Source: Sphingopyxis sp. (GTDB lineage: Bacteria; Pseudomonadota; Alphaproteobacteria; Sphingomonadales; Sphingomonadaceae). Taken from it: a stretch of 64,000 bases of DNA. A model generated the notes under the pieces. That model was not told the origin of the DNA. It searched no databases and was given only the letters and a program-made list of their open reading frames with translations. The translations under genes were made by a program, and so were the position numbers. The stretch spans positions 16,521-80,520 of the forward strand of contig JAEULK010000076.1 in the NCBI GenBank assembly GCA_016793775.1, written 5' to 3'. Positions 13,864-28,531 of this stretch are shown here, in pieces. Every line of letters starts with the position of its first letter. The stretch's first letter is position 1.

Positions 13864-14849
13864 ACGGCGCGAGCAACGCCAGCGACCGGCTGTGGATGTA
13901 TGCCACGATGGTCAAGAGCCGCCATTTCGAGGCGCTGATCAAGCCCGCCTATTTCGAAGGCAAAAGCCCGGTGTTCAATATGGCGAAGGGGCCTTTGCCG
14001 GGAGAGATGCATCTGTCCGACGGGCAGGAACCCTGCGCCGTTGGCGTCTGTGCGCATCTTCGGCCCGGCGATACGATCACGGCGACGCACCGCCCGCACC
14101 ATGTCGCCATCGCCAAAGGGGTCGATCTGGACGCAATGGCCGCGGAGATCTTTGGCAAGGCAAGCGGGCTGGCGGGCGGACGCGGCGGTCATATGCATTT
14201 GTTCGACGCGCGGGTGAATTTCGCCTGTTCGGGCATCATCGCGCAGGGTTTGGGGCCGGCGGTCGGCGCGGCGCTGGCGAGCAAGCTGCGCGGTGACGAT
14301 ACCGTCGCGGTCGCCTTTCTCGGCGAGGGCGCTGCGAACCAGGGGGCCTTTCACGAGGCGCTCAATCTCGCCTCGGTGTGGAAGGTGCCGGCGGTTTTCG
14401 TGATCGAGGACAATGCCTATGGCATCTCGGTCTCCAAGCGCGACTGCACGGCGGTCGAGCGCAACGCCGATCGCGCGGCGGCCTATTCGATGCCCGGCCA
14501 TTTCGTCGCCGGCAATGACGCCGACGCGGTCCACGCCATTGCCGGCGAGGCGATCGCGCGCGCTCGGCGCGGGGAAGGGCCATCGCTGATCGAGATCGAA
14601 ACCTGCCGGCTTGAGGGGCATTTCATGGGCGACGCGGAGGGTTATCGACCCGCAGGCGAGGTCGAACGGTTGAAGGCGCGCGATCCCATTCCGGCCTATC
14701 GCGCGCGCCTGCTCGCCGACGGTTTCGAGGCGATCGACCTCGACCGCGCCGAGGCCGAAGCCCGGGCGGCCGTCGATGCCGCCTTTGCCTTCGCACGCGC
14801 CGCGGCTTATCCCGATCCGGAAGAGGCTTTTGCCCATGTCTTCGCCTGA
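13860..14849 (+). CDS. Thiamine-diphosphate-dependent dehydrogenase E1 component, alpha subunit (AcoA/PdhA-like)
   Basis: A 329-residue E1 alpha subunit. The ThDP/Mg motif is present in variant form, GEGAANQG at 155-162 through VIEDN at 181-185 (usually GDG...NN). RGGHMHLFD and THRPHHVAIAKGVDL are close to acetoin:DCPIP oxidoreductase and branched-chain/pyruvate E1 alpha chains. With E1 beta it decarboxylates a 2-oxo acid, or cleaves an acyloin, and transfers the acyl group to a lipoyl arm. Overlaps the SDR stop by four bases and the E1 beta start by 14 bases, so stoichiometric expression is expected. The acetoin-type reading is an inference from similarity and neighbours. Confidence 0.88.
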   Translation: MNGASNASDRLWMYATMVKSRHFEALIKPAYFEGKSPVFNMAKGPLPGEMHLSDGQEPCAVGVCAHLRPGDTITATHRPHHVAIAKGVDLDAMAAEIFGKASGLAGGRGGHMHLFDARVNFACSGIIAQGLGPAVGAALASKLRGDDTVAVAFLGEGAANQGAFHEALNLASVWKVPAVFVIEDNAYGISVSKRDCTAVERNADRAAAYSMPGHFVAGNDADAVHAIAGEAIARARRGEGPSLIEIETCRLEGHFMGDAEGYRPAGEVERLKARDPIPAYRARLLADGFEAIDLDRAEAEARAAVDAAFAFARAAAYPDPEEAFAHVFA

Positions 14850-15879
14850 TACTGCAACGGCCGTTCGGCCGGCTCGCCGCCTGACCATCGCCCGCGCGAT
14901 CGCCGAAGCGATCGGGCAGGAAATGGAGCGGGATTCCGATGTCCTTGTCATGGGCGAGGATATCGCGAAGCTCGGCGGCGTTTTCGGCACGACAACCGGG
15001 CTGCTCGACCGCTTCGGCCCCGAACGTGTCCGCGACACGCCGATTTCCGAGACCGCCTTCATCGGCGCCGCGGTGGGTCTCGCGGCTTCGGGAATGCGCC
15101 CCGTGGTCGAGCTGATGTTCGTCGATTTCTTCGGCGTGTGCATGGACGCGATTTACAATCTCGCGGCCAAGCAGAGCTATTTTTCGGGCGGGCAGGTGAC
15201 GTGTCCGATGGTGCTGATGACCAGCGTCGGCGGCGGCTATGGCGATGCGGGTCAGCATAGTCAGGCGCTCTACGCGACTTTCGGCCATCTGCCGGGGCTG
15301 AAGGTTGTCATTCCCTCGAACGCGCACGATGCGAAGGGTCTGATGCTGGCGGCCATCCGCGATCCCAACCCGGTGATCTTCATGTATCACAAGGCGCTGC
15401 AGGGCATGGGCTGGCTTGGTACTGTACAGCGGTCGATCACCGATGCGCCGGAGGGCGATTATGTCGTCCCGCTCGGCAAAGCGAAATGCGTGCGCGAGGG
15501 CGAAGATGTCACGGTCGTAGGCCTGGGCCTTTCGGTTCATCAGGCGCTCGATGCCGCCGGGCGGCTCGCCGAAGAGGGTGTTTCGGCCGAGGTCATCGAT
15601 CTGATCAGCATCGCGCCGGTCGACCGCGAAACGGTAAGGGCATCGGTGCGCCGGACCGGGCGGCTGCTCGTCGTCGACGATGATTATCTGAGCTACGGCG
15701 TCGGCGCCGAGATCATCGCCAGCGTCTGCGAAGCGGGCATCCCGCTTCTCGTACCGCCGCAGCGCATTGCCTTTCCCGACATTCCCGTACCCTTCACCCC
15801 GGTGATGGAGCATTTCGTGCTGCCCAATGCCGACAAGGTCGCGGCCGCTGTACGTCAGATGATGGAGGTTCCGAACTGA
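14836..15879 (+). CDS. Thiamine-diphosphate-dependent dehydrogenase E1 component, beta subunit (AcoB/PdhB-like)
   Basis: A 347-residue E1 beta subunit with a transketolase-type pyrimidine-binding domain (GEDIAKLGGVFGTT, then DTPISETAFIGAAVGLAASGMRP in two blocks) and the C-terminal transketolase domain (EVIDLISIAPVD). The conserved glutamate that activates the ThDP aminopyrimidine lies in PISETAF. The ATG at 14836 lies inside the E1 alpha coding end. The stop TGA shares one base with the ATG of the lipoyl protein. Together with E1 alpha it forms an alpha2-beta2 E1; no E2 or E3 gene follows. Confidence 0.88.
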   Translation: MSSPDTATAVRPARRLTIARAIAEAIGQEMERDSDVLVMGEDIAKLGGVFGTTTGLLDRFGPERVRDTPISETAFIGAAVGLAASGMRPVVELMFVDFFGVCMDAIYNLAAKQSYFSGGQVTCPMVLMTSVGGGYGDAGQHSQALYATFGHLPGLKVVIPSNAHDAKGLMLAAIRDPNPVIFMYHKALQGMGWLGTVQRSITDAPEGDYVVPLGKAKCVREGEDVTVVGLGLSVHQALDAAGRLAEEGVSAEVIDLISIAPVDRETVRASVRRTGRLLVVDDDYLSYGVGAEIIASVCEAGIPLLVPPQRIAFPDIPVPFTPVMEHFVLPNADKVAAAVRQMMEVPN

Positions 15880-16109
15880 TGACCGATGTGACGATTCCAT
15901 CCGGCCTGTGGGGCGCCGACGATGAAGCCGCGATTTCGGCATGGCTCTACGCGGACGGCGACCCGGTCGCCGAAGGCGCGATCATTGCCGAGATCATGGT
16001 CGAGAAATCTAGTTATGAGCTCATCGCGCCCGCTGCGGGAACGCTGCAAATCTTGATCGCGGCCGAGGTGCCGGTACGTGCGGGGGCGGTGGCAGCGCAG
16101 ATCGTCTGA
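15879..16109 (+). CDS. Free-standing lipoyl-domain protein (76 aa)
   Basis: A 76-residue single lipoyl/biotinyl domain with nothing else: no peripheral-subunit-binding domain and no acyltransferase core. The lipoylatable lysine is K43 in MVEKSSYEL, followed by the conserved IAPAAG turn; GLWGADDEAAISAWLYADGD is the family's first hairpin. Normal E2 proteins have 400 or more residues, yet here start and stop are clean and the next gene abuts, so this is not an obvious truncation. It should be the acyl carrier for the E1 pair, and the next gene encodes a likely lipoylating ligase. Which protein hands the acyl group to CoA is unknown. Confidence 0.85.
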   Translation: MTDVTIPSGLWGADDEAAISAWLYADGDPVAEGAIIAEIMVEKSSYELIAPAAGTLQILIAAEVPVRAGAVAAQIV

Positions 16110-16805
16110 ATGATCGTGCCATCGACGATCGTGTCGCGCCTGGCGATGGCGATAGCAGATGATGTTCCGGTCGAGTGCGGCGACGGACGGACAGCGATCG
16201 ACGCGGATGACGTGCGCCTCGACGCCCTGCTCGGGGGTGACGCCAGCGCGGGCGGGTGGCGGCTATGGACAAACCGCCCTTGTCTCGTCACGACGCGGCG
16301 TTTTGCGGCTATGCCCCGCTTCGCCGATGCGGCGCTGGAGAGCGCCTGCCGAGGGTGGCCGGTATTTGTGCGACCGAGCGGGGGAACGACGGTGGCGCAC
16401 CGGCCCGGCACACTGAACGCCAGCCATTTTCAATCGTGGGGCGGGGACGGCGACGACGCAATCCAGCGGTTCCGGATATTCTGCGAGCATCTGGCAGCGT
16501 CCATATGTTCCGTAGGCGTCCGGGCATGCTTGGGTCGTGTCCATCGCAGCCACTGCGACGGCCGCTTTAATCTGGTATCGGCGGGACGGAAATTGGCCGG
16601 TACTGCGTCGCTCGTACGACGCAAAGGCGACTATGTCGGTTTGCTATGCCATGCGTCAATTTGGGCCGAAGGCGACGTCGCGGCGGACGTGAGGGCCATT
16701 GAACGTTTCGAGGCAGCCTTGGAACTTGATACGTCATACTCCGAGAATGTGCATGCAACGTTGGAACAGCATTTTATGTCGGCTTTCGCAGACACAGGCA
16801 CGTAA
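16110..16805 (+). CDS. Lipoate-protein ligase A-like protein
   Basis: A 231-residue protein of the LplA/BPL superfamily. Diagnostic parts are PSGGTTVAHRPGTLNAS near 90-106 (compare RRxGGGxVxHxxGxLN) and CDGRFNLVSAGRKLAGTA near 149-166, which contains the catalytic GRK lysine that binds lipoyl-AMP. It would attach lipoate or transfer lipoyl/octanoyl to K43 of the carrier encoded immediately before it. It starts directly at the base after that gene's stop. Shorter than E. coli LplA; the C-terminal accessory domain seems to be missing, as in several bipartite or transferase-type members, so ligase versus transferase activity is open. Confidence 0.75.
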   Translation: MIVPSTIVSRLAMAIADDVPVECGDGRTAIDADDVRLDALLGGDASAGGWRLWTNRPCLVTTRRFAAMPRFADAALESACRGWPVFVRPSGGTTVAHRPGTLNASHFQSWGGDGDDAIQRFRIFCEHLAASICSVGVRACLGRVHRSHCDGRFNLVSAGRKLAGTASLVRRKGDYVGLLCHASIWAEGDVAADVRAIERFEAALELDTSYSENVHATLEQHFMSAFADTGT

Positions 16806-16942: not shown

Positions 16943-17210
16943 CTGACCTGACCCCGATCTTTCATCCATCTGCAACCAGAGGCCGAGGGGTGTTGTCGCG
17001 CATAGGCGCAGGCGAAGCAACGGGCGGGGTTGACCCCGCCCGTTGCTTTTCGAGTTCGGCGGCGAACGCCGCCGGGGTGGCGTAGCCGAGCGAGGAGTGC
17101 GGCCGCTCGCTGTTGTAATCGTCGACCGCCCGTTCTCCCTCCTCCAGCGCCCGAAGCCGCCTGGCGTCCGACACCTCCAGCCCGCCGAACTATGCGCCCG
17201 AAGGCCGTTA
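16943..17210 (-). mobile_element. Right IS3-family remnant: orfB C-terminus and 3' end
   Basis: On the complement strand the frame ending near 16962 reads RAVDDYNSERPHSSLGYATP and then AAFAAEL, the hallmark C-terminus of IS3-family orfB integrase (DDE) proteins. It ends close to a terminal sequence read on the plus strand as TGACCTGACCCC from 16943. This matches the terminus of the left remnant (TGATCTGCCCCC) in 10 of 12 positions. Everything upstream of about 17210, including the catalytic core, is missing. Same orientation as the left copy. The left boundary abuts the lipoate-ligase side, the right boundary is ragged. Confidence 0.75.
17017..17050 (+). terminator. Strong intrinsic-terminator-like hairpin inside the IS3 remnant
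   Basis: GCAACGGGCGGGG (17017-17029), loop TTGA, CCCCGCCCGTTGC (17034-17046), then TTTT. A perfect 13-bp stem with a T run on the plus strand, about 210 bases after the lipoate-ligase stop. It would stop transcripts of the SDR-E1-lipoyl operon. Confidence 0.75.
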
Positions 17211-17247: not shown

Positions 17248-18387
17248 CTAGCTTCGGATCGTGGGCTTGCTGAGAAATGGCACCGCCGCCAGCATGAGGA
17301 ATATCGCGCCGCTGAAAATCATCGCGGCGTCGATCGAAAAGCTGCCGACGGCCACCCCGGCGATCGAGGGCAGCACCGCTGCGCCGCCTAACTGGAAGGC
17401 CGTGAGGTAAAGGACCGCGCGACGGCCGGGATCGATTTCGATCAGCCATCCGGCGAAGAAGGGCAGGGTGAAGAGCCATATAAAACCGAACGCGATGCTC
17501 ACGGCAAGGATTGCGGCGGCATTGCCGCGGCCCACGAAGAATAGGGCGATCAACAGGGCTCCGGCGAGAGCGCAGACCGAAATCGTCTGCCGGTTTGGCA
17601 GGCGCTCGCCAAATCGCGCTGCGGCCAGCGCGCCGACGACTTGCGCGACAAGGCATAACGACACGGCGGTTCCCTCGAAAGTCGGCGGGTATCCATAGCG
17701 GATGAGCCAGAGGCCAAAATAGCTCCAGACCGAGACGATCGCGCCGAGGAACAGGCCCGCTCCCCAAAGGGCGGTGAGGCTGGCGCGTGTCAGGCCGCCG
17801 CGTTCGCCATCCGGCGCGGCGGGTTGAAGCTGCGATGGAAGTGACCAGGCCGCCGCTGCGGCGATCGCGCCGGCGAGGGCGAGGGCCAGCAACGCGATGT
17901 CCGTGCGCGAACTGCCCGCAATGACGAAGGGAAGTGCGGCGGCAACGGCCGCCTGCAAAAATGTCTGGACGGCGAGGAAGATGGCGCTGGCGCGTTCGAC
18001 CCGCTCGACACGCGAAATGGCGACAAGCGCTGAGGCCACGAGCACCCCTTCGCTTAGCCCGGCAACTCCGCGCAAGGAGGAGAGGACCGCCATGCCCGAC
18101 TGGCCCGCCATCGCGAGGTTCATGGCGACGACGACGAGCCCAGCAACGCCGATCACGACGCGCGCGCCCATCTTGCGGAGCAAGGCGATGCCGGCCAGCG
18201 ATCCGAGGGCCATCGCGATCATCTCGATCGTCACCAGATTGCCGACCTGCGCCTCGGCGATGCGGCCTTCCTGCACCATCGCGCCGAGCAGAACCGGCTG
18301 AACGCCGAGCACCAGTAGCGCGCAAGAGCCGATCAGAATGGAGGTGGCGAGCGTCCGGCCCGTGACTGGCGACAACGGGCCGGTCAA
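17248..18387 (-). CDS. MFS transporter
   Basis: A 379-residue major facilitator with about twelve hydrophobic helices, of inner-membrane type. It has no clear long periplasmic loop and carries the loop-2/3 segment with LRKMGARVVIG. No specific substrate motif is recognisable. It starts inside the stop of the TetR-family gene (four-base ATGA overlap), so the pair is one operon; by divergence it shares a promoter region with the TonB receptor of the aminotransferase-kinase-aldolase operon. Either import of the same substrate or efflux is possible; I favour import across the inner membrane after TonB-dependent uptake. Confidence 0.85.
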   Translation of the reverse strand: MTGPLSPVTGRTLATSILIGSCALLVLGVQPVLLGAMVQEGRIAEAQVGNLVTIEMIAMALGSLAGIALLRKMGARVVIGVAGLVVVAMNLAMAGQSGMAVLSSLRGVAGLSEGVLVASALVAISRVERVERASAIFLAVQTFLQAAVAAALPFVIAGSSRTDIALLALALAGAIAAAAAWSLPSQLQPAAPDGERGGLTRASLTALWGAGLFLGAIVSVWSYFGLWLIRYGYPPTFEGTAVSLCLVAQVVGALAAARFGERLPNRQTISVCALAGALLIALFFVGRGNAAAILAVSIAFGFIWLFTLPFFAGWLIEIDPGRRAVLYLTAFQLGGAAVLPSIAGVAVGSFSIDAAMIFSGAIFLMLAAVPFLSKPTIRS

Positions 18388-19046
18388 GGAGCGGTCTTTC
18401 GGCCCGCACGCAGCTGCAGATATTCGGGAAGAAAGGTTCGCGAATAGGCAATGCGGGCCCGGCGCGCCTGTTCCTCCATCTCGTCGGTGATCAGCCCATG
18501 GCGGTGGATCGACAGTGACCAGATCGCATCATTGATCACGATGACTTCGACCAGCCGGTCATGCAGGTCGGGTATCTCGGGCATCACGAACATCTGCGTC
18601 ATCAATTCGATGCTGCGCCCCGCGGTCACGAAATTGCTGTCGAGATCCTGCAGGCGGATGTCGGACGACCAGGCGGGGCCTTCGAGCAGCACCTGGCGCG
18701 CAGCAGGATGCGCGTTGAACCATTTTTGTCCGGCGCGATATTGCAGCGTCTGCAATTCCTGCCAGCTTTCGACGTCCTGGGGTACTTCGGTCAGCACCCC
18801 CGCTTCGAACCGTTTCAGATACCGCTCGGCGAGTGCGCTGAACACGAGATGGGGTTCGGGAAAGAAATGATAGATCGAGGGCGGCGAGATGCCGACTTCG
18901 GCCGCGATCACATGGATGCTGATGGCAGAAGGCGGCAATGTCTCGAGCAGGCGCTCGGCCCCGTCAAGGATAGCCTCGAACCGCTCCCGGCTGCGTTTCT
19001 GCGCCGGGCGGCGGATTTCGGCGCGGGTCATTTCACCTGTGGTCAT
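18384..19046 (-). CDS. TetR family transcriptional regulator
   Basis: A 220-residue TetR-type repressor. The N-terminal helix-turn-helix is at about 25-75 (AILDGAERLLETLPPSAISIHVIAAEVG, then ISPPSIYHFFPEP), and the C-terminal ligand domain is all helical. The ATG at 19046 has AGGAGC just upstream; longer starts lack such a site. Overlaps the MFS gene by four bases. The palindrome at 19165-19180 in the leader of the divergent TonB receptor gene is the natural candidate operator, so this is probably the local repressor of uptake and catabolism, released by the substrate. Confidence 0.88.
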   Translation of the reverse strand: MTTGEMTRAEIRRPAQKRSRERFEAILDGAERLLETLPPSAISIHVIAAEVGISPPSIYHFFPEPHLVFSALAERYLKRFEAGVLTEVPQDVESWQELQTLQYRAGQKWFNAHPAARQVLLEGPAWSSDIRLQDLDSNFVTAGRSIELMTQMFVMPEIPDLHDRLVEVIVINDAIWSLSIHRHGLITDEMEEQARRARIAYSRTFLPEYLQLRAGRKTAP

Positions 19047-19164: not shown

Positions 19165-19180
19165 TCGGATAAATATCCGA
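19165..19180. promoter_or_regulatory. Perfect 16-bp palindrome, probable TetR operator
   Basis: TCGGATA-AA-TATCCGA lies 17 bases upstream of the receptor start codon and downstream of a TTGACT (19134-19139) that could be a -35 box. A related half-site, TTTTATCCGG, lies near 19098. Position and form fit a repressor site that blocks initiation or early elongation. Confidence 0.6.
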
Positions 19181-19197: not shown

Positions 19198-21435
19198 ATG
19201 ATGAAACGCGGTTTTGCGATGATGTCGGTCTCGTTGCTGGCGCTGATTCCGGCGGTTGCGGCGGCGCAGGAGTCCGCAGGTTCTTCTTCTTCGGCCGTCG
19301 CGGAGCAGGACGGGATCGGCGAGATCGTCGTGACCGCCCAGCGGCGTGAGCAGAATATCCAGGATGTCCCGATCAGCATCACCGCGATCAGCGGCGAGGC
19401 GCTGACCGAAGTCGGCATCCGCGATCCGCGCGATCTGTCGCTGCTCGTCCCCGGCCTTTCGTCGCAGGCGGGCACCTCGGCGACGACGACCTCGCTGTTC
19501 CTGCGCGGCGTCGGGATTGGCGACTTCAACTCGAACACCACCGGCGCGGTCGGCGTCTATGTCGACGACGTCTTTCTCGGAGCGAACGCCGGCAAGCTGT
19601 TCAACGTCTTCGACAGCGAGGGCATCGAAGTGCTGAAGGGGCCGCAGGGTACGCTCTATGGCCGCAACACCACCGCCGGTGCGATCCGCTTTTCGTCGCG
19701 CAAGCCGACCGACGAATTCAGCGCCAATGCCGCCGTCTCCTATGGACGCTACAATGAAGTGCAGGTCGAGGGCGGGGTCGGCGGGCCGATCGCCGGCGAT
19801 GTGCTGAAGGCGCGCGTCGCCGGCACCTATCTGCGCCGCGACGGCTGGCTGCTCAACCGCGTTACCGGGAACAAGCTCAACAATCTCGACATGTGGGCGG
19901 GCCGCGCGATCGTCGATTTCACGCCCAATTCCGACATATTGATCCGCGCGATCGTCCATGGCGGGCAGAACCGGGGCGGCGCGCGTCAGTTCCAGCATCG
20001 CGGGCAGGGCATCGATTTTGCCGGCAATCCCAATTTCGCGAACGGCGTGCCGCTCGACGCCTTGGGCTATGCCGATACCGACGGCGACCTCAATGCGGGC
20101 GATTATGACATCGAGGGGCAGGAGCGCGTCAATGTCTTCGGCGGCTCGCTGACCGCGAGCATCGATATGGGCGGGGTCATGCTGACATCGATCAGCGCCT
20201 ATGAACAGGTGCGCCGGAGCACGGTCGAGGATACTGACGCGAGCCCGAACAATGTGCTGACCGCGACCTATATCGACCGGCCAAAGCAATATAGCCAGGA
20301 ACTGCGGCTGCAGTCGAAGGACGGCGGCACGGTGAACTGGATCGTCGGGGGTTATTATTTCCACGACAAGCTCGTCACCGAGAGCGCGTTCGACATCCTC
20401 CGCGTGTTCCGCGATCCGAACGATCTTCTCGGCACGTTCGATCCGGCCAATTCCATCGGCAATTTCGCCTATCCCTATACGCAGACGACCGAGAGCTGGG
20501 CCGCCTTTGCGCAGGCCGACGTCAAGCTGTCGGACAAGCTGACCCTGACCGGGGGGCTGCGCTATTCGGTCGACAGCATCGATTTCGATTTTCACAGCTT
20601 CTTCGACGACGTGATCGTCGTGCCGGTGCTCGACTTCACCGGTTCGAAGACCTTCAAGGATCTGTCGTGGCGTGCCGCGCTGTCGTTCCAGGCGACCGAC
20701 GATCTGCTCTTCTACGCCTCGTCGTCGAAGGGCTATAACAGCGGCGGTTTTGCGGGTGGGTCGTCGAGCGATTCGGCGCAGTTGCAGCCGTTCCGGTCGG
20801 AAAAGCTCTACGCCTATGAGGCGGGTTTCAAAAGCGATCTTCTGGGCCGGAAACTGCGCTTCAATGCCGCAGCCTTCTATTATGATTATCGCGATTTGCA
20901 GGTGTTCGTTTTCGATACGTCGGGCGTGCTGCCGGTCCAGCGCAAGCTCAACGCGGGCAATGCCGAGCTATATGGTCTCGAAGTCGAATTGCAGGCGCAG
21001 CCGTCGCGCAATTTCAACGCCTTCGTCAACGCCAGCCTCCTCCACGCGCGCTACAAGGATTTCACCGCGCTCGCGGCGGACGATTATTCGGGCAACAAGC
21101 TGGTCAACGCGCCCGAAGTGGCGATCTCGGCCGGTTTCTCGCTGACCCAGCCGCTGCCCGGCGACAGCGCGCTGCGCCTTCGCGTCGACGGCAGCCTTCA
21201 GTCGGAGGTGTTTCTGACGCCGGACAATGTGCAGGCCAATCGCGTGAAGCCTTATGGCACCGCCAACGTCCGGCTTTCGTGGCTCTCGCCCGACGAGAAT
21301 CTCGAACTCGCATTGTGGGGCAAAAACATCACCGGCACGCGCTTCGTCACCTATGTTTCGCCGGTCGTGACCATGGACCAGATCAACTACAATGATCCGG
21401 CGACCTATGGTGTCCAGGCTGTCCTGAAATTCTGA
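19198..21435 (+). CDS. TonB-dependent outer-membrane receptor
   Basis: A 745-residue receptor with a signal peptide (cleavage near AVAAAQES), N-terminal GEIVVTAQRREQNIQDVPISI, plug motif KGPQGTLYGRNTTAGAI and a beta barrel ending in QAVLKF. Same subfamily as the receptor at 9529. ATG at 19198 (or 19201) is preceded by GGAGAAGGGGAAG. It starts an operon with the FumI-like aminotransferase (12 bases later), the PfkB kinase and the aldolase, and should import their amphiphilic or polyol-like substrate. Confidence 0.92.
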   Translation: MMKRGFAMMSVSLLALIPAVAAAQESAGSSSSAVAEQDGIGEIVVTAQRREQNIQDVPISITAISGEALTEVGIRDPRDLSLLVPGLSSQAGTSATTTSLFLRGVGIGDFNSNTTGAVGVYVDDVFLGANAGKLFNVFDSEGIEVLKGPQGTLYGRNTTAGAIRFSSRKPTDEFSANAAVSYGRYNEVQVEGGVGGPIAGDVLKARVAGTYLRRDGWLLNRVTGNKLNNLDMWAGRAIVDFTPNSDILIRAIVHGGQNRGGARQFQHRGQGIDFAGNPNFANGVPLDALGYADTDGDLNAGDYDIEGQERVNVFGGSLTASIDMGGVMLTSISAYEQVRRSTVEDTDASPNNVLTATYIDRPKQYSQELRLQSKDGGTVNWIVGGYYFHDKLVTESAFDILRVFRDPNDLLGTFDPANSIGNFAYPYTQTTESWAAFAQADVKLSDKLTLTGGLRYSVDSIDFDFHSFFDDVIVVPVLDFTGSKTFKDLSWRAALSFQATDDLLFYASSSKGYNSGGFAGGSSSDSAQLQPFRSEKLYAYEAGFKSDLLGRKLRFNAAAFYYDYRDLQVFVFDTSGVLPVQRKLNAGNAELYGLEVELQAQPSRNFNAFVNASLLHARYKDFTALAADDYSGNKLVNAPEVAISAGFSLTQPLPGDSALRLRVDGSLQSEVFLTPDNVQANRVKPYGTANVRLSWLSPDENLELALWGKNITGTRFVTYVSPVVTMDQINYNDPATYGVQAVLKF

Positions 21436-21447
21436 TCAACAAGCGAG

Positions 21448-22728
21448 ATGGAAATGAGCCGAGTACAGGATGCGGCGCTGCGTGCGCGCGCGATGGAAGT
21501 GATCCCGAACGGGATGTATGGGCATGAATCGGTGCGGATGCTCCCCGACAGCTTCCCGCAATTCTTCAGCAAGGCCGAGGGCGCCTATATCTGGGACGCC
21601 GACGGCAATCGCTATCTCGACTATATGTGCGCCTATGGGCCCAGTCTGCTCGGCTATCGCGACGCGCGCATCGATGCGGCGGCACAGGCGCAAGCGGCGC
21701 TCGGCGATACGCTGACCGGACCGTCGCCGCTGATGGTCGAACTCGCCGAAACCCTGGTGGAGATGGTCGACCACGCCGACTGGGCGATGTTCTGCAAGAA
21801 CGGTACCGACGCGACGACGATGGCGATGAGCAGCGCGCGCGCGCAGACGGGCAAACGCATCGTGCTGGTCGCGAAGGGGGCATATCATGGCGCTGCGCCT
21901 TGGTGCACGCCGATCCCGTCAGGGACCGTCGCCGAAGACCGGGCGCACCTCCGCACCTATGCCTATAACGACATCGCGAGCCTGGAGGCAGCGGTCGCCG
22001 ACGCGGGCGACGATCTCGCCGCAATCTTCGCATCGCCTTTCCGCCACGACGCCTTTATCGATCAGGAAGCGCCCGATCCTGCCTATGCCCGGCGCGCGCG
22101 CGAACTTTGCGATCAGACGGGTGCGATGCTGATTGTCGACGAGGTTCGCGCGGGTTTCCGCCTCGCGCGTGGCAGCAGCTGGACCGAACTCGGCGTTCAG
22201 CCCGACCTCAGCGCCTGGGGCAAATGCTTCGCCAATGGCCATCCCATCTCGGCGTTGCTCGGATCCGATAGCTGCCGTGAAGGCGCCGGTTCGATCTATG
22301 CCACCGGATCCTTCTGGTTGTCGGCGGTGCCGATGGCGGCGGCGATCGAGACGTTGCGGATCATACGCGAGAGCGATTATCTCGAACATATGGTTCGCCT
22401 TGGCAATAGCCTGCGGTCGGGGCTCGACGCCGCTGCGACAAAGCATGGCTTCGTGCTGCGCCAGACCGGCCCTGTCCAGATGCCGCAGATCATGTTCGCC
22501 GACGATCCCGATTTCCGCGTCGGCTATGGCTGGGCGGAAGAGATGCTCGCACGCGGCGTCTATGTGCATCCCTGGCATAATATGTTCCTGTGCGCTGCGA
22601 TGACCGATGCCGACATCGACCTGACCGTCACGGCAGCCGGCGACGCCTTTGCCGCGCTTGCAAAGCGAAGCGGCGAGCTTGAGCCGCACCCGGTCCTCGT
22701 TGCGCTTGCGGCGGCCGCGGACGGTTGA
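21448..22728 (+). CDS. Class III PLP-dependent aminotransferase, FumI-like
   Basis: A 426-residue fold-type I, class III aminotransferase related to glutamate-1-semialdehyde aminomutase. PLP lysine is K259 in SAWGKCFANG; D231 in DEVRAGFR contacts the pyridine nitrogen. Conspicuous stretches such as YGHESVRMLP, IWDADGNRYLDYMCAYGP, MFCKNGTDAT and VYVHPWHNMF look almost the same as in the fumonisin B1 aminotransferase FumI of Sphingopyxis, as I remember it; no alignment was made. FumI removes the 2-amino group of hydrolysed fumonisin, a sphingoid-base analogue, with pyruvate as acceptor. Start at 21448 or the ATG 6 bases later. Followed 2 bases after its stop by a kinase gene. Confidence 0.85.
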   Translation: MEMSRVQDAALRARAMEVIPNGMYGHESVRMLPDSFPQFFSKAEGAYIWDADGNRYLDYMCAYGPSLLGYRDARIDAAAQAQAALGDTLTGPSPLMVELAETLVEMVDHADWAMFCKNGTDATTMAMSSARAQTGKRIVLVAKGAYHGAAPWCTPIPSGTVAEDRAHLRTYAYNDIASLEAAVADAGDDLAAIFASPFRHDAFIDQEAPDPAYARRARELCDQTGAMLIVDEVRAGFRLARGSSWTELGVQPDLSAWGKCFANGHPISALLGSDSCREGAGSIYATGSFWLSAVPMAAAIETLRIIRESDYLEHMVRLGNSLRSGLDAAATKHGFVLRQTGPVQMPQIMFADDPDFRVGYGWAEEMLARGVYVHPWHNMFLCAAMTDADIDLTVTAAGDAFAALAKRSGELEPHPVLVALAAAADG

Positions 22729-22730
22729 CC

Positions 22731-23675
22731 ATGCAACTCGACCTTCTCGCCGTCGGCCTCACGACGATCGACGTCACGGTCTATCCGGTGGCGTCATTGC
22801 CCGAGGGCGAGACGGGGCAAATCGTCGAGAAGATCGTTCTGTCGCCCGCCGGCACCGCGGGCGGGACCGCCTTTGTCGCGCAGAAGCTGGGCCTCCGCGC
22901 GGGAATCGCTTCGGCGGTCGGTGACGATCCGCAGGGGCAGTTGATCCGGTCGATGTTCGACGCGGCCGGGGTCGATACCAGCCTGCTTTGCGTCGATCCG
23001 GCTTGGCCGACATCGACCACGGTCCTGCCGATCCGCCCGAACGGTGACCGTCCGAACTGGCATATGATGGGGGCTAGTATCTTCGCGCCGGTCACCGATG
23101 CGGTATTCGCCGCGCTGGCCCGCACCGCCGCCGTCCACTGGGGCGGTGTGGGCTTTCCGGGCGCCGCAGGGAAGGGCGCCGACCTGCTGCGTGAGGCGCG
23201 CGCGCGCGGCGTGTTCACATCGTGCGACCTGATCGCGCCTTCGGACGCGGCGCAGGCCGATCTCGATGTCCTGTTGCCGCATGTCGACCTGTTCATGCCA
23301 AGCCTTGCGGAGGTTCGCGCGCTGGCCGGGACCGACGATCCGGTCGAGGGCGCCGGCCGCTTCATGGTGCGCGGCGCGGGTGGCTGCCTGATCAAGATGG
23401 GCGGCGACGGCGCGCTGCTCATCCTGCCCGACCGGCAGATCCAGGTTCCTGCGCACCGGATCGATCCTGTCGATACCACCAGCTGCGGAGACAGCCTGTG
23501 TGCGGGATATATCGCGGGTCGCACGCGCGGCCTTGATCCCGTCGATGCGCTGCGTTTCGGGGTCGCCACCGCGGCGCAGGTCGCGCTCGGCGTCGGCACG
23601 CTGGGCAAGCTCGAAAGCTATGATACGACCTTGGCGTTCATGGGCGATACGTCGGCAAGGGAGGAGGATCGATGA
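22731..23675 (+). CDS. PfkB family carbohydrate kinase
   Basis: A 314-residue ribokinase/PfkB-family kinase, phosphorylating a hydroxyl group with ATP. N-terminal GxT/GG substrate-binding turn (SPAGTAGGTAFVAQKLG) at about 39-55; C-terminal signature DTTSCGDSLCAGY at 248-260 with D254 as catalytic base (usually DTxGAGD, here SCGD). The ATG at 22731 is preferred to a TTG six bases earlier. The stop overlaps the aldolase start by four bases. In the proposed pathway it phosphorylates C1-OH of a 2-keto polyol, making a ketose-1-phosphate-like substrate for the aldolase. Confidence 0.88.
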   Translation: MQLDLLAVGLTTIDVTVYPVASLPEGETGQIVEKIVLSPAGTAGGTAFVAQKLGLRAGIASAVGDDPQGQLIRSMFDAAGVDTSLLCVDPAWPTSTTVLPIRPNGDRPNWHMMGASIFAPVTDAVFAALARTAAVHWGGVGFPGAAGKGADLLREARARGVFTSCDLIAPSDAAQADLDVLLPHVDLFMPSLAEVRALAGTDDPVEGAGRFMVRGAGGCLIKMGGDGALLILPDRQIQVPAHRIDPVDTTSCGDSLCAGYIAGRTRGLDPVDALRFGVATAAQVALGVGTLGKLESYDTTLAFMGDTSAREEDR

Positions 23676-24322
23676 CCGAAGACGAAGCCCGGCAGCAGCT
23701 TGTCGATGCGATGCGCTCGCTCGACGCGCGCGGTCTGAATCGTGGGACATCGGGCAATCTTTCGGTGCGTTTCGCATCGGGCATGTTGGTCACCCCTTCG
23801 GGCGTGACGCCCGACCGCCTGACCGCCGACCTGATGGTCTATGTCGATGGCGACGGAAGCGTGGCTGCGGGATCCGCACGCCCGTCGAGCGAATGGCAAA
23901 TGCATATGGGCCTGTATCGGCGCCGGCCCGACGCGAATGCGATTGTGCATTGCCACGCACGATACTCGACGATCCTGGCTTGTGCGCACCGCGAGATTCC
24001 GCCGCTGCATTACATGGTGGCGGTCAGTGGCGGAGCCAGCGTCCCCATCGCACCCTATGCGACATTCGGCAGCGAGGAACTCGCCGACGGCGTCGTGCAG
24101 ACGCTCGACGGGCGTTCCGCGTGCCTGATGGCCAATCATGGGCTAATTGCACTCGGCCCCAAACTTCCGGTCGCGATGGCGATTGCCGAGGAAATAGAGG
24201 AACAGGCGGCCGTCTATTGCGGTACGCTTGCGATAGGCGGTCCGAAGTTGCTTAACGCAATCGAGATGGAAAGGATCATCGCGGCCTTCACGCAGTATGG
24301 CCAGCGCGACACGAAGGGGTGA
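23672..24322 (+). CDS. Class II aldolase/adducin family protein (FucA-like)
   Basis: A 216-residue zinc-dependent aldolase. Zinc and catalytic residues match those of L-fuculose-1-phosphate aldolase shifted by one: E74, H93, H95 and H156 (SSEWQMH, HCHARYS, ANHG), plus the TSGNLSVR phosphate-binding segment at 26-33. FucA cleaves a 2-keto-3,4-dihydroxy-1-phosphate into dihydroxyacetone phosphate and an aldehyde. Length is as in the family. It is the last gene of the operon, coupled to the PfkB kinase by a four-base overlap, which supports sequential action. Confidence 0.88.
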   Translation: MTEDEARQQLVDAMRSLDARGLNRGTSGNLSVRFASGMLVTPSGVTPDRLTADLMVYVDGDGSVAAGSARPSSEWQMHMGLYRRRPDANAIVHCHARYSTILACAHREIPPLHYMVAVSGGASVPIAPYATFGSEELADGVVQTLDGRSACLMANHGLIALGPKLPVAMAIAEEIEEQAAVYCGTLAIGGPKLLNAIEMERIIAAFTQYGQRDTKG

Positions 24323-24462: not shown

Positions 24463-25953
24463 CTATCGTTGATGGATGAGGAGTTCGGTCCCGATGTAGC
24501 GGGCCGGGCTGACATGCTCGATCCGCTGTGTTTTTCGACTGGTATTGCCCATGAAGGTCACTTCGACGGTAACGGGCGTCATTGAGGCGAGGCCGAAATG
24601 GAGCGGCTGGGTGCCTTGCGAATTATAGCCGTCGCCGGTCGAGATCTGGCGCGTCGCGAGGATCTTGCCCTCGGCGTCGAACAGGCGGACCTCGGCGCCC
24701 ATGCGGGTGTAGCGCCCAGCCTTGTCGAGCACGCGAACCGAAAGGCTGCGGCGCGCGGCCTTCTTGCCAAGGTCGTTGTGGAATAGGAAATGGCCGCCGG
24801 TGTCGGTGTATCCGCGCGTTACCGAGAGATCGAGCGCACCGTCGCGGTCATAGTCGATCCACTGGACGCCATGGTCGGCGACGTCGAGCGCCGAGCCGGC
24901 GGGCAGGATGTTCTCGAAGCCCTTGCCGCCGAGGTTGCGATAGAGCCGGTTCGCGGGCTGCTGCGCGCCCGACTTGCCGGTGTAGGCGGCGACGAAGAGG
25001 TCGAGCCAGCCGTCATTGTCGAAATCGCCCCAGGCGGCGCCCACGGCATGATTGTCCTCGGCGAGGCCGAGCGTCGGAGCGACATTTTCGAAGCTGCCGT
25101 TGCCCTTGTTGCGGTAAAGGATGTTGACCCCGTAGCTCGCCACGAACAGGTCGAGGTGGCCATCATTGTCATAGTCACCGACAGCGCAGCCGACGCTGCC
25201 TTCGGTGCGGGGACGGCCGGGGCGATCCATGCCGAGGGCGGGGGCGACGTCGGTGAAGCGGTCGCCGTCGTTGCGCCACAGCGCGTCGGTCGCGCCCGAC
25301 TGGTTGGCGAGGAAAAGATCGAGTTCGCCGTCGCGGTCATAGTCGAACCAGCAAGCGCCGACGGTCGGCCGCGCATCGTCGCCGGCCTGATCGGCGGGGA
25401 CGCGCACGAAACGGCCCGCCTCCTGGCGATAGAGGGCATTGGGTCCCGAGCGGTTCGCGGCGAAGAGATCGAGGTCGCCGTCATTGTCGAAATCGACCCA
25501 GTTGGACTGGCGTGCCGAGCGCCCGGCCGCTACGGGATCGACACCCTGCGCGACGAAACGGCGGCCGCTTGCGTTTCGGAAGAGGAGGTTCGCGGCATTT
25601 TCTTCGGTCGCGCCCGCGTAAAGATCGGGCCAGCCGTCGCCGTCGTAATCGCCCCAGGCTAGGCCGCGCATCTCGGCGCCGGTTACGGGAAGTCCCATAG
25701 CCGCGCCGACGCTGGTGAAATGGCCGCGGTCGTTTCGATAGAGGCGAATTTCGCCGCTTTCGAGCGAGACCGCGAGGTCGAGGTCCCCATCGCGGTCGAA
25801 ATCGGCCCAACTGTTCGACAGCGAGCCGGGCAGGCTGAAGTCGGCGGCTTGGACGGGGGTAAAAGCTGGACCGGTCGCCCCGGCCGCCCCGCCGCCGGCA
25901 ATACCGGTCGATAGGACGGCCCAGGACAAGATCCGCATCAATTCATCGCGCAT
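24463..25953 (-). CDS. CRTAC1 family protein with seven FG-GAP/VCBS repeats and C-terminal ASPIC/UnbV domain
   Basis: A 496-residue exported protein. A short hydrophobic leader is followed by seven calcium-binding blades, each with a D-F/Y-D-x-D-G-x-x-D-L loop (for example DFDRDGDLDL, DYDGDGWPDL, DFDNDGWLDL), forming a seven-bladed propeller; residues after about 400 are the ASPIC/UnbV domain. CTGGAG precedes the ATG at 25953. It lies 27 bases after the TonB receptor gene and is probably its periplasmic or surface partner; receptor-CRTAC1 pairs are common in sphingomonads. The molecular role of this family in uptake is not established. Confidence 0.87.
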   Translation of the reverse strand: MRDELMRILSWAVLSTGIAGGGAAGATGPAFTPVQAADFSLPGSLSNSWADFDRDGDLDLAVSLESGEIRLYRNDRGHFTSVGAAMGLPVTGAEMRGLAWGDYDGDGWPDLYAGATEENAANLLFRNASGRRFVAQGVDPVAAGRSARQSNWVDFDNDGDLDLFAANRSGPNALYRQEAGRFVRVPADQAGDDARPTVGACWFDYDRDGELDLFLANQSGATDALWRNDGDRFTDVAPALGMDRPGRPRTEGSVGCAVGDYDNDGHLDLFVASYGVNILYRNKGNGSFENVAPTLGLAEDNHAVGAAWGDFDNDGWLDLFVAAYTGKSGAQQPANRLYRNLGGKGFENILPAGSALDVADHGVQWIDYDRDGALDLSVTRGYTDTGGHFLFHNDLGKKAARRSLSVRVLDKAGRYTRMGAEVRLFDAEGKILATRQISTGDGYNSQGTQPLHFGLASMTPVTVEVTFMGNTSRKTQRIEHVSPARYIGTELLIHQR

Positions 25954-25980
25954 GATACGGACTCCAGTGGATGGTCTTGA

Positions 25981-28455
25981 TCAGAAATCGAGCGAGATCC
26001 GACCATAATAATAGCCGCCATATTGGCCGAACGGTCCGGCGCCATAGGGTGCGAGCCCGATGGTGTTGGCGACAGTCGTGCGGTCCGGATAGACGTCGAA
26101 GATGTTATAGGCGCCCGCGGCGACCCGCAACTTCTCGGTCACGCCGTAGGACACCTCGAGATCGGTGATCCACTTGGCGCCGAAGCTCTGGTCGTTGACG
26201 GGAAGACCGCCGACGAGATTGTCGAGCGACTTGAACTTGTCGTAGCGGGTTTCCTTGAGGTTGATCGCGAACGGACCCGATTCGAAGTTGGCGCCGAGGA
26301 TCAGCTTCGTTTTGGGAGCCGAAGTGAACCAGCCCTGGGTGCGCCGGTCGAACAGGGTCAGGCCGAGACCTGCGAGTTCGCTCGGGTTGGCCGCGATTTT
26401 GCGGATGTCGGTATCGTTATAGTTGAAACCGACGCTGGTGCGCAGGCGTCCGGCGCTGCCGACATCGAATGCATAGGTGCCGACGACATCGACGCCGCGC
26501 GTGCGGGTATCGACGGCGTTGGTGAAGAAACGCACCGACTGGTCACCCGAAAAGCCGTTGGCGACCAGGATGTTCCGGATCCCCGTGCCCGACAACAAGC
26601 CGGTGAGGGTGATGCGGTCGTCGAGATCGATCTGATAGGCATCGACCGAGAGCGAGAGGCCCGACGCCGGCGTCAAGGTGAAGCCGAGACTGAAGTTCTT
26701 CGACTTTTCGGGCTTGAGCGGCTGCGCGCCGAGGGCCTGTGCAACCGCCGAGTTCGTCTTCACGATCTTGGTGAGCACCGGGATATACACGCCGCCGACG
26801 AGGTTGATCGACGTCGAGGTCTGCGCGAAGTCCTGTTGCGCAAGCGAAGGCGCGCGGAAGCCGTTGCTGAACGCGCCGCGGAAGGCGAGCCAGTCCGTAA
26901 CCTCGTAGCGCGCGCTGAGCTTGCCGCTGAAGACGCTGCCCGAGCTGTCGTCGAAATGCTCGAAGCGACCCGCCGCGGTGACGAGGAAGCGCGGGCTGAC
27001 GTCGAGCGCGAGATCGACATAGCCGGCCCAGATGTTGCGGTTGATGTTCGCCGCATCCTCGGGGGTGACGACGATCGCGCCTTGTGCCCCCACCTGCGCC
27101 GGGCGTCCGGCGAGCGGACCGGTCGGGTAGAAATAGCCCCCCGCTCGATAGCTGTCGACGTCGAGCGGCTTGGTGACGTAATTCTCGTAACGATATTCAG
27201 CGCCGAGCGAGACCTGGAGTGCGGTGTCGCCGCCGAACTCGATACGGCGGGTGAGGTCGAGATTGTTCGTCCACTGGTCGAATGCCGAGCTGAAGGTCTT
27301 GAACTCGGTCGGGCTCGACGGGCCGAGCGACGCGTTGAGCGTATTTTCGGCGCCATTCTTGGCATAGTTGCGGCCATAGGTGCTGCTGAGATCGATGTTC
27401 CAGCCCGCCGTCTCGCCGCGAAGGCCGCCGGTGAACTGGAAGTCGGTTTCCTGCAGCGTGTAGTAAGGCGTGAAGCCGTCGGGATATATCTGGATGATAT
27501 TCTGGTTGCTGTTCGGGCGGCGGCCGGCCTGGCCGACGCGCGCGTCGCGATAGCCGAAGGTGCCATCCGAATAGAAGGTGACGTTGCCGAGCGGCAGGAC
27601 GAGCGTTTGCGCGACCTTGACGTCCTTCACGTCGGGGAGGCCGCCTTGATAGGTCCGGCGATTGGCGGTGAGTTCGCGCGGATCGGGTACACCGCCGGCG
27701 AGCGGAAAATAGAGCGCCCCGGTCACGTCGGTGTTGCGCACGGCGGCGTTGGCCTTCTTTCCTTCGACCGACAGCGTGAACGAACCGCCGTCGCCGATCG
27801 CGAAGCCGTGCGAGACGCTGCCCGAGATGGTTTCGCCGTCGCTGCCGCTGCCGTCGCGGCCATAGCGCTGACCGGCTTCGAGGGTCGCCTTGCCGCCCGA
27901 GTCATTGGTCTTCAGGATGACGTTGATCACCCCCGCGATCGCATCCGAGCCATATTGCGCCGAGGCACCGTCGCGCAGCACTTCGATGCGCTCGATCGCA
28001 CTCGACGGAATGAGATCGAGATCGACCGGGTTGCCGCCCTGCGACGTCGCGCCCGAGTTGATGTCGATGATCGAGCTGTTGTGGCGGCGCTTGCCGTTGA
28101 CGAGCACCAGCACATGGACGCCCGACAGGCCGCGAAGGCCCGCGGGACGCGTCAGGCTGTTGAACGACGAACTGCCCACGGTCGTCGATTGGAAGGACGG
28201 CACGAGTTGCGTCAGCGCGTCGCGAAGTTGCATGCCACCGCCGAGCTTTTCAAGGTCTTCGCCGCCGATCACGTCGATCGGAGTCGGGCTTGATATGACG
28301 GTACGCGCCTGGCCGCGCGTGCCGGTGACGATGATTTCGGAAGGCGATGCCGATTCGCCGGCGTCGTCGGCCGGTGCATCCTGCGCGAAGGCGGGCATGG
28401 ACATGGCGGCGGCGACGCAGGACGCCCCCACCAGCAGTCGCGTATATGTTTTCAT
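25981..28455 (-). CDS. TonB-dependent outer-membrane receptor
   Basis: An 824-residue receptor of a second subfamily (VLVNGKRRHNSS, LIPSSAIERIEVLRDGASAQYGSDAIAGVIN in separate blocks). Signal peptide cleaved after MPAFA. The plug is typical; the barrel ends in YYYGRISLDF. CAGGAGCAAGACC precedes the ATG at 28455. It lies 76 bases downstream of the cystathionine-lyase-like gene and an ECF sigma gene, and upstream of the CRTAC1 gene. It lacks the N-terminal STN domain needed for FecA-type signalling, so the sigma factor is not controlled through this receptor in the classical way. Confidence 0.92.
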   Translation of the reverse strand: MKTYTRLLVGASCVAAAMSMPAFAQDAPADDAGESASPSEIIVTGTRGQARTVISSPTPIDVIGGEDLEKLGGGMQLRDALTQLVPSFQSTTVGSSSFNSLTRPAGLRGLSGVHVLVLVNGKRRHNSSIIDINSGATSQGGNPVDLDLIPSSAIERIEVLRDGASAQYGSDAIAGVINVILKTNDSGGKATLEAGQRYGRDGSGSDGETISGSVSHGFAIGDGGSFTLSVEGKKANAAVRNTDVTGALYFPLAGGVPDPRELTANRRTYQGGLPDVKDVKVAQTLVLPLGNVTFYSDGTFGYRDARVGQAGRRPNSNQNIIQIYPDGFTPYYTLQETDFQFTGGLRGETAGWNIDLSSTYGRNYAKNGAENTLNASLGPSSPTEFKTFSSAFDQWTNNLDLTRRIEFGGDTALQVSLGAEYRYENYVTKPLDVDSYRAGGYFYPTGPLAGRPAQVGAQGAIVVTPEDAANINRNIWAGYVDLALDVSPRFLVTAAGRFEHFDDSSGSVFSGKLSARYEVTDWLAFRGAFSNGFRAPSLAQQDFAQTSTSINLVGGVYIPVLTKIVKTNSAVAQALGAQPLKPEKSKNFSLGFTLTPASGLSLSVDAYQIDLDDRITLTGLLSGTGIRNILVANGFSGDQSVRFFTNAVDTRTRGVDVVGTYAFDVGSAGRLRTSVGFNYNDTDIRKIAANPSELAGLGLTLFDRRTQGWFTSAPKTKLILGANFESGPFAINLKETRYDKFKSLDNLVGGLPVNDQSFGAKWITDLEVSYGVTEKLRVAAGAYNIFDVYPDRTTVANTIGLAPYGAGPFGQYGGYYYGRISLDF

Positions 28456-28531
28456 GGTCTTGCTCCTGAACACGGAAAAATGTTCCCCCAATTGAACCTG
28501 CTACATTTTCGTTTTCCGCCGGTTTCGGCGC

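What the first reader, a model, noticed from the sequence alone, without database searches (positions are those of the whole stretch)
19198..24322. FumI-like aminotransferase, PfkB kinase and FucA-like aldolase in one operon: a possible transaminate-phosphorylate-cleave pathway for 2-amino-polyols such as phytosphingosine
Seen: TonB receptor, class III aminotransferase, PfkB kinase and class II aldolase follow each other with 12-, 2- and minus 4-base spacing, under a TetR regulator and beside an MFS carrier. Known: FumI removes the 2-amino group from a sphingoid-base analogue; FucA-type aldolases cut 2-keto-3,4-dihydroxy-1-phosphates to DHAP and an aldehyde, and E74, H93, H95 and H156 match FucA's zinc site. 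Inferred: a 2-amino-1,3,4-triol (phytosphingosine-like) would become a 1,3,4-trihydroxy-2-ketone, then its 1-phosphate, which is exactly an aldolase substrate giving DHAP plus a long-chain aldehyde. An amino-alditol would also fit. I know no described bacterial route of this logic for sphingoid bases.
Basis: partly seen in the sequence, partly recalled or inferred. Interest (0 to 1): 0.78.

Follow-up and report, generated by a model that had tools for sequence, protein, structure and literature searches.

The report
Probable bacterial phytosphingosine-breakdown operon
A conserved set of bacterial genes appears to remove an amino group, add a phosphate and split a molecule in two, most likely to eat plant or fungal membrane lipids of the phytosphingosine type, a route we found no description of; the substrate itself is not yet proven.

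Summary
In detail: TonB receptor, class III aminotransferase (AT), PfkB kinase and FucA-like aldolase form one tight + strand operon (19198-24322), divergent from TetR and MFS genes. AT is 62% identical to FumI (257/417) and far from other solved enzymes. AT, kinase and aldolase lie within 3.5 kb in 24 further loci (sphingomonads, hyphomonads, caulobacters) in three arrangements; 55 of 80 loci fetched by AT have neither kinase nor aldolase. The trio kinases form one well-supported clade. The aldolase keeps 13 of 14 FucA active-site residues checked (Thr43 is Ser). An acylase-like DMFA2 gene lies in 11 of 24 loci; DadA, alanine racemase and RidA in some, which fits pyruvate as amino acceptor. 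The nearest other kinases examined sit in sugar ABC operons, two of six with FucA-type aldolase, SDR and ALDH. So the module reads as a polyol dehydrogenase/kinase/aldolase pathway whose oxidation became a transamination and whose importer became TonB plus MFS. A phytosphingosine-type substrate is the best guess (about 0.5) but untested; a small amino-polyol is the main rival.

The parts
17251..18387 (-). MFS carrier (379 aa), putative inner-membrane uptake
   Evidence: Pfam MFS_1; homologues of it in 18 of 24 trio loci, an ATG22-like MFS in 5 others
18387..19046 (-). TetR-family regulator, overlaps or abuts MFS
   Evidence: Pfam TetR_N; 79-91% identical in the 7 nearest loci L023-L029
19134..19139 (+). 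TTGACT, candidate -35 box of the TonB-AT-kinase-aldolase operon
   Evidence: CTTGAC conserved in all 8 aligned intergenic regions
19165..19180 (.). Palindrome TCGGATAAATATCCGA, candidate TetR operator; occurs once in the window
   Evidence: degenerate forms in the 7 aligned relatives
19198..21435 (+). TonB-dependent receptor (PF00593, PF07715)
   Evidence: a TonB receptor in 21 of 24 trio loci
21448..22728 (+). FumI-family class III aminotransferase, catalytic Lys259 by motif (WGKCFANG)
22731..23675 (+). PfkB-family kinase, motif DTTSCGDS
23672..24322 (+). FucA-like class II (zinc) aldolase

Best explanation
A catabolic operon for a 2-amino-1,3,4-triol, most likely a phytosphingosine-type long-chain base, in some relatives probably released from an N-acyl form. 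Steps: (1) uptake by TonB receptor and MFS; (2) in many relatives an acylase-like enzyme (DMFA2 domain; not found in this genome) frees the amine; (3) the FumI-family AT moves the C2 amino group to pyruvate, giving a 1,3,4-trihydroxy-2-ketone and alanine, which DadA/Alr/RidA would recycle in several relatives; (4) the PfkB kinase phosphorylates C1-OH; (5) the FucA-type aldolase cuts C3-C4 to DHAP and an aldehyde (pentadecanal for C18 phytosphingosine). Own reasoning on stereochemistry: D-ribo-phytosphingosine, once oxidised at C2, has the D-erythro 3,4-diol of D-ribulose-1-P and L-fuculose-1-P, the configuration FucA makes; sphinganine and sphingosine lack the C4-OH and could not be cut. Shown: gene conservation, families, catalytic residues. 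Inferred: every reaction and the substrate. My estimates: one linked pathway 0.85; DHAP-forming cleavage of a 2-keto-1-phosphate 0.75; long-chain base 0.5.
For: AT 62% identical to FumI, which transaminates hydrolysed fumonisin B1 with pyruvate (PMC2933618, passages); three more homologues, 61-74% identical to the known enzymes, consumed it (PMC9858248, first part and passages). Trio in 24 loci in three arrangements: 10 AT-kinase-aldolase, 11 divergent AT | kinase-aldolase, 3 aldolase-AT-kinase; the last 3 have a more distant aldolase (42-44% identity in the two measured) that keeps the zinc His, Glu, Tyr113 and Phe131 sites, as if replaced. In 298 family genomes kinase and aldolase (E<=1e-40) occur only in the same 3, all among the 9 with AT. 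Kinases of 26 trio loci form one clade (SH-aLRT 100, nine outside kinases), splitting into the same two halves as the AT tree. DMFA2 in the fetched flanks of 11 of 24 trio loci, single copy in 8 of 16 trio genomes and 0 of 14 controls; nearest solved structure an N-acetyl-(R)-beta-phenylalanine acylase, weak match (37.6 bits). DadA in 7, Alr in 6, RidA in 3 of 24 trio loci, none in the 55 others. TonB in 21 of 24 and an MFS in 23 of 24; no sugar-ABC importer like those of the sugar operons in 24 trio loci (only a weak ABC-ATPase match in L024), whereas 6 of 6 annotated regions of the nearest other kinases examined carry sugar ABC importers.
Against: No sphingolipid-specific gene among the recurrent neighbours annotated; ceramidase PF04734 in 1 of 16 trio genomes. 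The window genome, its six nearest relatives examined and the L036 genome lack DMFA2, so the acylase step is not general. In PMC9858248 only one of the three homologues gave the 2-keto product; the other two showed only the acetamide product. The ALDH beside the trio in L035, L036 and L103 is 53-54% identical to ALDHs of sugar operons, which points to a small aldehyde there. Aldolase position 43 (phosphate site, recalled) is Ser, not Thr. PfkB kinases with lipid substrates are not known to me. AT, kinase and aldolase all fall below the NCBIfam cut-offs of their best families.
Confidence: 0.5

Rival explanations
1. Same three-step logic, but the substrate is a small, water-soluble N-acyl or free amino-polyol (for example a 2-amino-2-deoxy-alditol of ribo configuration); products DHAP and a short hydroxy-aldehyde.
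For: Kinase and aldolase look derived from sugar enzymes: two of the six annotated nearest kinase regions hold FucA-type aldolase, sugar ABC importer, SDR and ALDH. The ALDH of L103 (98-100% in L035, L036) resembles those sugar-operon ALDHs (53-54%). More distant AT relatives sit with ABC importers and, in Shinella, Agrobacterium and Pseudoroseomonas, with four-carbon acid sugar kinases and class II aldolases.
Against: No sugar ABC importer was found in the 24 trio loci, which mostly carry TonB and MFS. The FumI-family members tested act on a long-chain amino-alcohol. I know of no abundant natural amino-alditol of this kind.
Confidence: 0.28
2. AT is a FumI-like detoxifier of sphinganine-analogue toxins, and kinase/aldolase serve an unrelated ketose; the genes are neighbours only.
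For: AT family members consume hydrolysed fumonisin; AT occurs without kinase and aldolase in 55 of 80 loci.
Against: Kinase and aldolase of this subfamily stay with AT through three gene arrangements and distant host groups; the kinase forms a single trio-only clade in the tree made; no carboxylesterase among the window genes scanned.
Confidence: 0.1
3. The operon runs in the biosynthetic direction: aldolase condenses DHAP with an aldehyde and AT aminates the product, making an amino-polyol lipid.
For: Aldolases and transaminases are reversible in principle (established knowledge).
Against: A PfkB kinase would add, not remove, phosphate; TonB and MFS genes and the alanine-to-pyruvate genes DadA/Alr in relatives point to catabolism.
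Confidence: 0.05

Closest known systems
FumI (aminopentol aminotransferase, PDB 6hbs) and the fum gene cluster of Sphingopyxis sp. MTA144 (GenBank FJ426269, not seen here)
   Same: AT 62% identical over 417 residues; same signature motifs and PLP lysine; alanine-recycling partners in relatives fit its pyruvate acceptor
   Different: FumI lies outside both trio clades in the AT tree, on a long branch. Its substrate has no C1 hydroxyl, so kinase and aldolase could not follow; from memory the fum cluster has no such genes
L-fuculose-1-phosphate / ribulose-1-phosphate aldolase (FucA) pathways
   Same: 44% identity to E. coli FucA; 13 of 14 checked zinc, phosphate and tail residues identical
   Different: PfkB instead of the FGGY kinase (recalled) and a transaminase instead of isomerase or dehydrogenase; below the NCBIfam FucA cut-offs
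Polyol-type operons with FucA-type aldolase, sugar ABC importer, PfkB kinase, SDR and ALDH (Shinella L148, Sulfitobacter L147)
   Same: Homologous kinase (37%) and aldolase; same kinase-aldolase logic
   Different: SDR and sugar ABC uptake there; transaminase and TonB/MFS uptake here. The operons' own substrates are inferred
Sphingosine-1-phosphate lyase route; Pseudomonas aeruginosa sphBCD
   Same: Goal: destroy a sphingoid base
   Different: In the lyase route (recalled) the amino-alcohol is phosphorylated with its amine and split by a PLP lyase at C2-C3; SphC and SphB are a periplasmic oxidoreductase and cytochrome c (PMC11893366, abstract and passages)

Membership tests
FumI-type aminotransferase | Sequence kinship well above other class III enzymes | tested here: met
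   587 bits to FumI against 167 to the next PDB entry; 257/417 identical
FumI-type aminotransferase | Activity on hydrolysed fumonisin B1 or sphingoid bases | not testable with these tools
   No assay; homologues of 61-74% identity to the known enzymes consume HFB1, one of three with the 2-keto product
fum cluster | Carboxylesterase FumD and the other fum genes beside AT | tested here: not met
   No carboxylesterase among the window genes scanned; FJ426269 itself not compared
FucA class II aldolase | Zinc His92/94/155, Glu73, T26 N29 T43 G44 S71 S72, Y113 F131 F206 Y209 (roles recalled) | tested here: met
   13 of 14 identical in the window protein, Thr43 is Ser. Among other rows: 43 is Ser or Thr except Ala in L035, L036, L103, which also have Ser26 (and Ile206 in L035); S71 is Thr in L137; ends missing in L036, L049, L102, L103
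FucA class II aldolase | NCBIfam FucA cut-off | tested here: not met
   212.7 of 264 bits (NF005984), 196.9 of 400 (TIGR01086)
PfkB kinase | PF00294 over cut-off, catalytic Asp in the GxGD-type motif | tested here: met
   133 bits against 25.8; DTT[S/T]CGDS in all 26 rows, D254 invariant in 16
PfkB kinase | Membership of a named substrate class (tagatose, fructose-1-P, ribose, KDG kinases) | tested here: not met
   Best NCBIfam 86.7 of 420 bits
Sphingosine-1-phosphate lyase pathway | PLP lyase acting on the phosphorylated amino-alcohol | tested here: not met
   No such gene in the operon; AT is class III. The rest of the genome was not searched for it
N,N-dimethylformamidase-like acylase step | DMFA2_C protein in the genome with the trio | tested here: inconclusive
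   8 of 16 trio genomes; not found in this genome

The most novel reading that the evidence does not exclude
A new route for sphingoid-base catabolism: phytoceramide is N-deacylated, transaminated at C2, phosphorylated at C1 by a lipid-acting PfkB kinase and cut by a FucA-type aldolase straight to DHAP and an odd-chain aldehyde. The need for a C4 hydroxyl in D-erythro form makes it selective for plant, fungal and algal phytosphingosine and spares 4-unhydroxylated bases. The wider FumI family would be a sphingoid-base transaminase family plugged into different downstream modules: kinase/aldolase for 1-hydroxy bases, and an FMO-like enzyme plus acetyl-CoA synthetase (with a GDSL esterase in L037) for methyl ketones from 1-deoxy bases.
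Probability: 0.42. Interest if true: 0.8.

Novelty: new variant of a known kind. Interest (0 to 1): 0.62.

Why it matters
Phytosphingosine is a major backbone of plant and fungal membranes, yet the searches made listed no bacterial pathway that takes it to central metabolism in this way. If true, the module gives the FumI family a natural role, extends PfkB kinases and FucA-type aldolases to lipids, and supplies new relatives of mycotoxin-detoxifying enzymes. Even if the substrate is a small amino-polyol, a conserved transaminase-kinase-aldolase pathway would be new to me.

Tried and rejected
Ceramidase as partner: 1 of 16 trio genomes, rejected as a general partner. P450 as sphinganine 4-hydroxylase: in 5 of 24 trio loci, no informative PDB relative for the one tested; left as speculation. 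Specificity positions separating trio ATs from other family members: four internal positions passed the filter (43, 207, 306, 360), and FumI shares the trio residue at 43, 306 and 360, so AT alone does not tell the substrate. The L137 neighbour guessed as ALDH is an alkylsulfatase-like metallo-beta-lactamase. FMO of the sister clade as a strict Baeyer-Villiger enzyme: its motif is FxGxxxHxxxH, not the BVMO form (recalled), and its PDB match 8acs is listed only as FAD-dependent oxidoreductase; undecided. Distance-matrix correlation: AT-kinase r 0.94; AT-aldolase 0.59, or 0.84 without L035, L036 and L103; 0 of 2000 permutations reached any of them. This does not separate co-inheritance from shared species history. 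Structure prediction was not obtained.

Limits: the genome scan kept 80 of 264 relatives; both trees were quick searches; only representatives of recurrent neighbour clusters were annotated; for the outside kinases 7 of the 24 non-trio hits listed (of 340 records) were opened, 6 of them annotated. Literature: open PMC papers only; listings seen, the one shows 15 of 644. From recall, not calls: stereochemistry, FucA residue roles, fum cluster content, lyase route, IS3 and BVMO motifs.
Full report
OBSERVATION. The window lies in a 3.93 Mb genome (G000:C52) whose nearest named relatives at this locus are Sphingopyxis. Pfam supports every gene. A TTGACT box (19134) and a 16-base palindrome TCGGATAAATATCCGA (19165-19180), once in the window, lie between TetR and the TonB gene; CTTGAC and degenerate forms of the palindrome recur in the seven relatives aligned, as expected for one promoter under the divergent TetR.

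AMINOTRANSFERASE. Against all PDB sequences AT matches FumI (6hbs, aminopentol aminotransferase) with 587 bits; the next, GSA aminomutase, has 167. 257 of 417 aligned residues are identical. FumI moves the C2 amino group of hydrolysed fumonisin B1 to pyruvate (PMC2933618, passages). Three other homologues, 61-74% identical to the known enzymes, completely consumed the same substrate, but the 2-keto product was seen for only one of them (PMC9858248, first part and passages).

CONSERVATION. A scan of 84,980 genomes with AT alone gave 264 relatives, of which the best 80 were kept. In 23 of 80, kinase and aldolase homologues lie within 3.5 kb; with plasmid L103 that makes 24 loci. L068 and L077 carry a kinase cut by the contig end. 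The other 55 have neither in the DNA fetched; several of those contigs are short. Orders in the 24: AT-kinase-aldolase 10, divergent AT | kinase-aldolase 11, aldolase-AT-kinase 3. Some of the 24 are near duplicates (L036 and L103 have identical AT), and some record names are loose (one is labelled Rhodobacterales, one only bacterium). In 298 genomes of the window's family AT occurs in 9 (one only 37% identical), kinase in 3 and aldolase in 3; the 3 are the same genomes and lie among the 9. In 385 genomes of the class AT occurs in 13 and the kinase in 4: the window, G620 with AT beside it, and two at 36-41% identity without AT; one of these two has an aldolase-kinase pair.

TREES. The AT tree (90 rows) puts trio ATs in two clades, sphingomonads (SH-aLRT 97) and Hyphomonas/Henriciella/Caulobacter/Phenylobacterium (99). 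Other groups carry other partners: an amidase (PF01425) in 35 of the 55 non-trio loci, an acetyl-CoA synthetase-like gene in 8 and an FMO-like gene in 7 of a mainly Novosphingobium group. FumI sits outside with Variovorax and Pseudosulfitobacter plasmid ATs, on a long branch. One Phenylobacterium genome (PB1.003) holds both a trio AT (L087) and an amidase-type AT (L078), and P. aquaticum (L102) has a second AT 64% identical to the window's, so these look like separate pathways. The kinase tree (rooted on one outside row, nine outside kinases in all) puts all 26 trio kinases in one clade (100) on a long stem, divided into the same two halves; the simplest reading is that kinase and AT joined once.

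CHEMISTRY. The window aldolase keeps 13 of 14 FucA residues checked (zinc ligands, catalytic Glu, phosphate site, tail); Thr43 is Ser. The kinase keeps its catalytic Asp in DTTSCGDS. The nearest kinases outside the trio that I opened belong to sugar ABC operons (6 of 6 annotated regions), in two of these with FucA-type aldolase, SDR and ALDH. Such importers were not found in the 24 trio loci, apart from a weak ABC-ATPase match in L024. I read the trio as an amino version of that polyol pathway: ketone made by transamination instead of dehydrogenation, uptake by TonB plus MFS instead of sugar ABC.

PARTNERS. A DMFA2-domain protein (PF20254), whose nearest solved relative is an N-acetyl-(R)-beta-phenylalanine acylase (weak, 37.6 bits), lies in the fetched flanks of 11 of 24 trio loci. 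It occurs once in each of 8 of 16 trio genomes, in one of them on another contig than the trio (G312: C55 against C87), and is absent from 14 control genomes, from the window genome and its six close relatives, and from the L036 genome. DMFase-like genes also sit near AT in Variovorax, Pseudoroseomonas and in L142 without kinase and aldolase. D-amino-acid dehydrogenase (7 of 24), alanine racemase (6) and RidA (3) occur in trio loci and in none of the 55 others; with alanine as product of a pyruvate-dependent AT they would restore pyruvate. P450 occurs in 5 of 24, a close ALDH in 3 and a distant one (29%) some 7 kb off in a fourth.

SUBSTRATE. For kinase and aldolase to follow AT, the ketone needs C1-OH and a C3,C4-diol: the substrate is a 2-amino-1,3,4-triol. 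Phytosphingosine is the abundant natural one, its D-ribo configuration gives the D-erythro diol of FucA substrates (own reasoning), and FumI-family enzymes accept long chains. Against: no sphingolipid-specific gene among the recurrent neighbours annotated, ceramidase in 1 of 16 genomes, a sugar-type ALDH in one branch. I put long-chain base at 0.5 and small amino-polyol near 0.28.

LITERATURE. Searches (open PMC papers only, listings seen, 15 of 644) listed no bacterial pathway of this logic. The nearest, P. aeruginosa sphBCD (PMC11893366, abstract and passages), is a periplasmic oxidation with an undefined product.

VERDICT. A real, conserved and apparently undescribed catabolic module; chemistry well supported by context, substrate open and directly testable.

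Noticed in passing
13090-16805: SDR, pyruvate/acetoin-dehydrogenase-like E1 alpha and beta, a free-standing 76-aa lipoyl-domain protein (15879-16109) and an LplA-like ligase in a row, behind an AraC regulator; no E2 acyltransferase gene was seen between them.
   Followed up: partly
about 17000-17200, - strand: Fragment with the IS3-type transposase C-terminal motif DDYNSERPHSSLGY (motif recalled) just beside the MFS gene: a mobile-element remnant at the edge of the module.
   Followed up: partly
24463-28491, - strand: FG-GAP/ASPIC-UnbV repeat protein next to a second TonB receptor; beyond it a Cys/Met-metabolism PLP enzyme and a sigma-70-like factor.
   Followed up: partly
L041, L042, L043, L045, L046, L047: In Novosphingobium relatives the FumI-family AT sits with an FMO-like monooxygenase and an acetyl-CoA synthetase-like gene (a related FMO and a GDSL esterase in L037), which might degrade methyl ketones from 1-deoxysphingoid bases.
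   Followed up: partly
L078 and L087: One Phenylobacterium genome (PB1.003) carries both an amidase-type and a kinase/aldolase-type FumI-family AT locus.
   Followed up: partly
L102:8327-8961: The aldolase match is split into two neighbouring pieces, so the gene may be broken or the assembly may have an error.
   Followed up: no
L137:10376-11803: An alkylsulfatase-like metallo-beta-lactamase lies next to the AT and TetR genes of a distant trio locus, a possible hint of amphiphilic substrates.
   Followed up: partly
L030, L032, L044: ATs 73-75% identical to the window's occur in contigs labelled Acidimicrobiales/Actinomycetota (L032, and by clustering L030, beside an acetyl-CoA C-acyltransferase): horizontal transfer or mis-binned contigs.
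   Followed up: no
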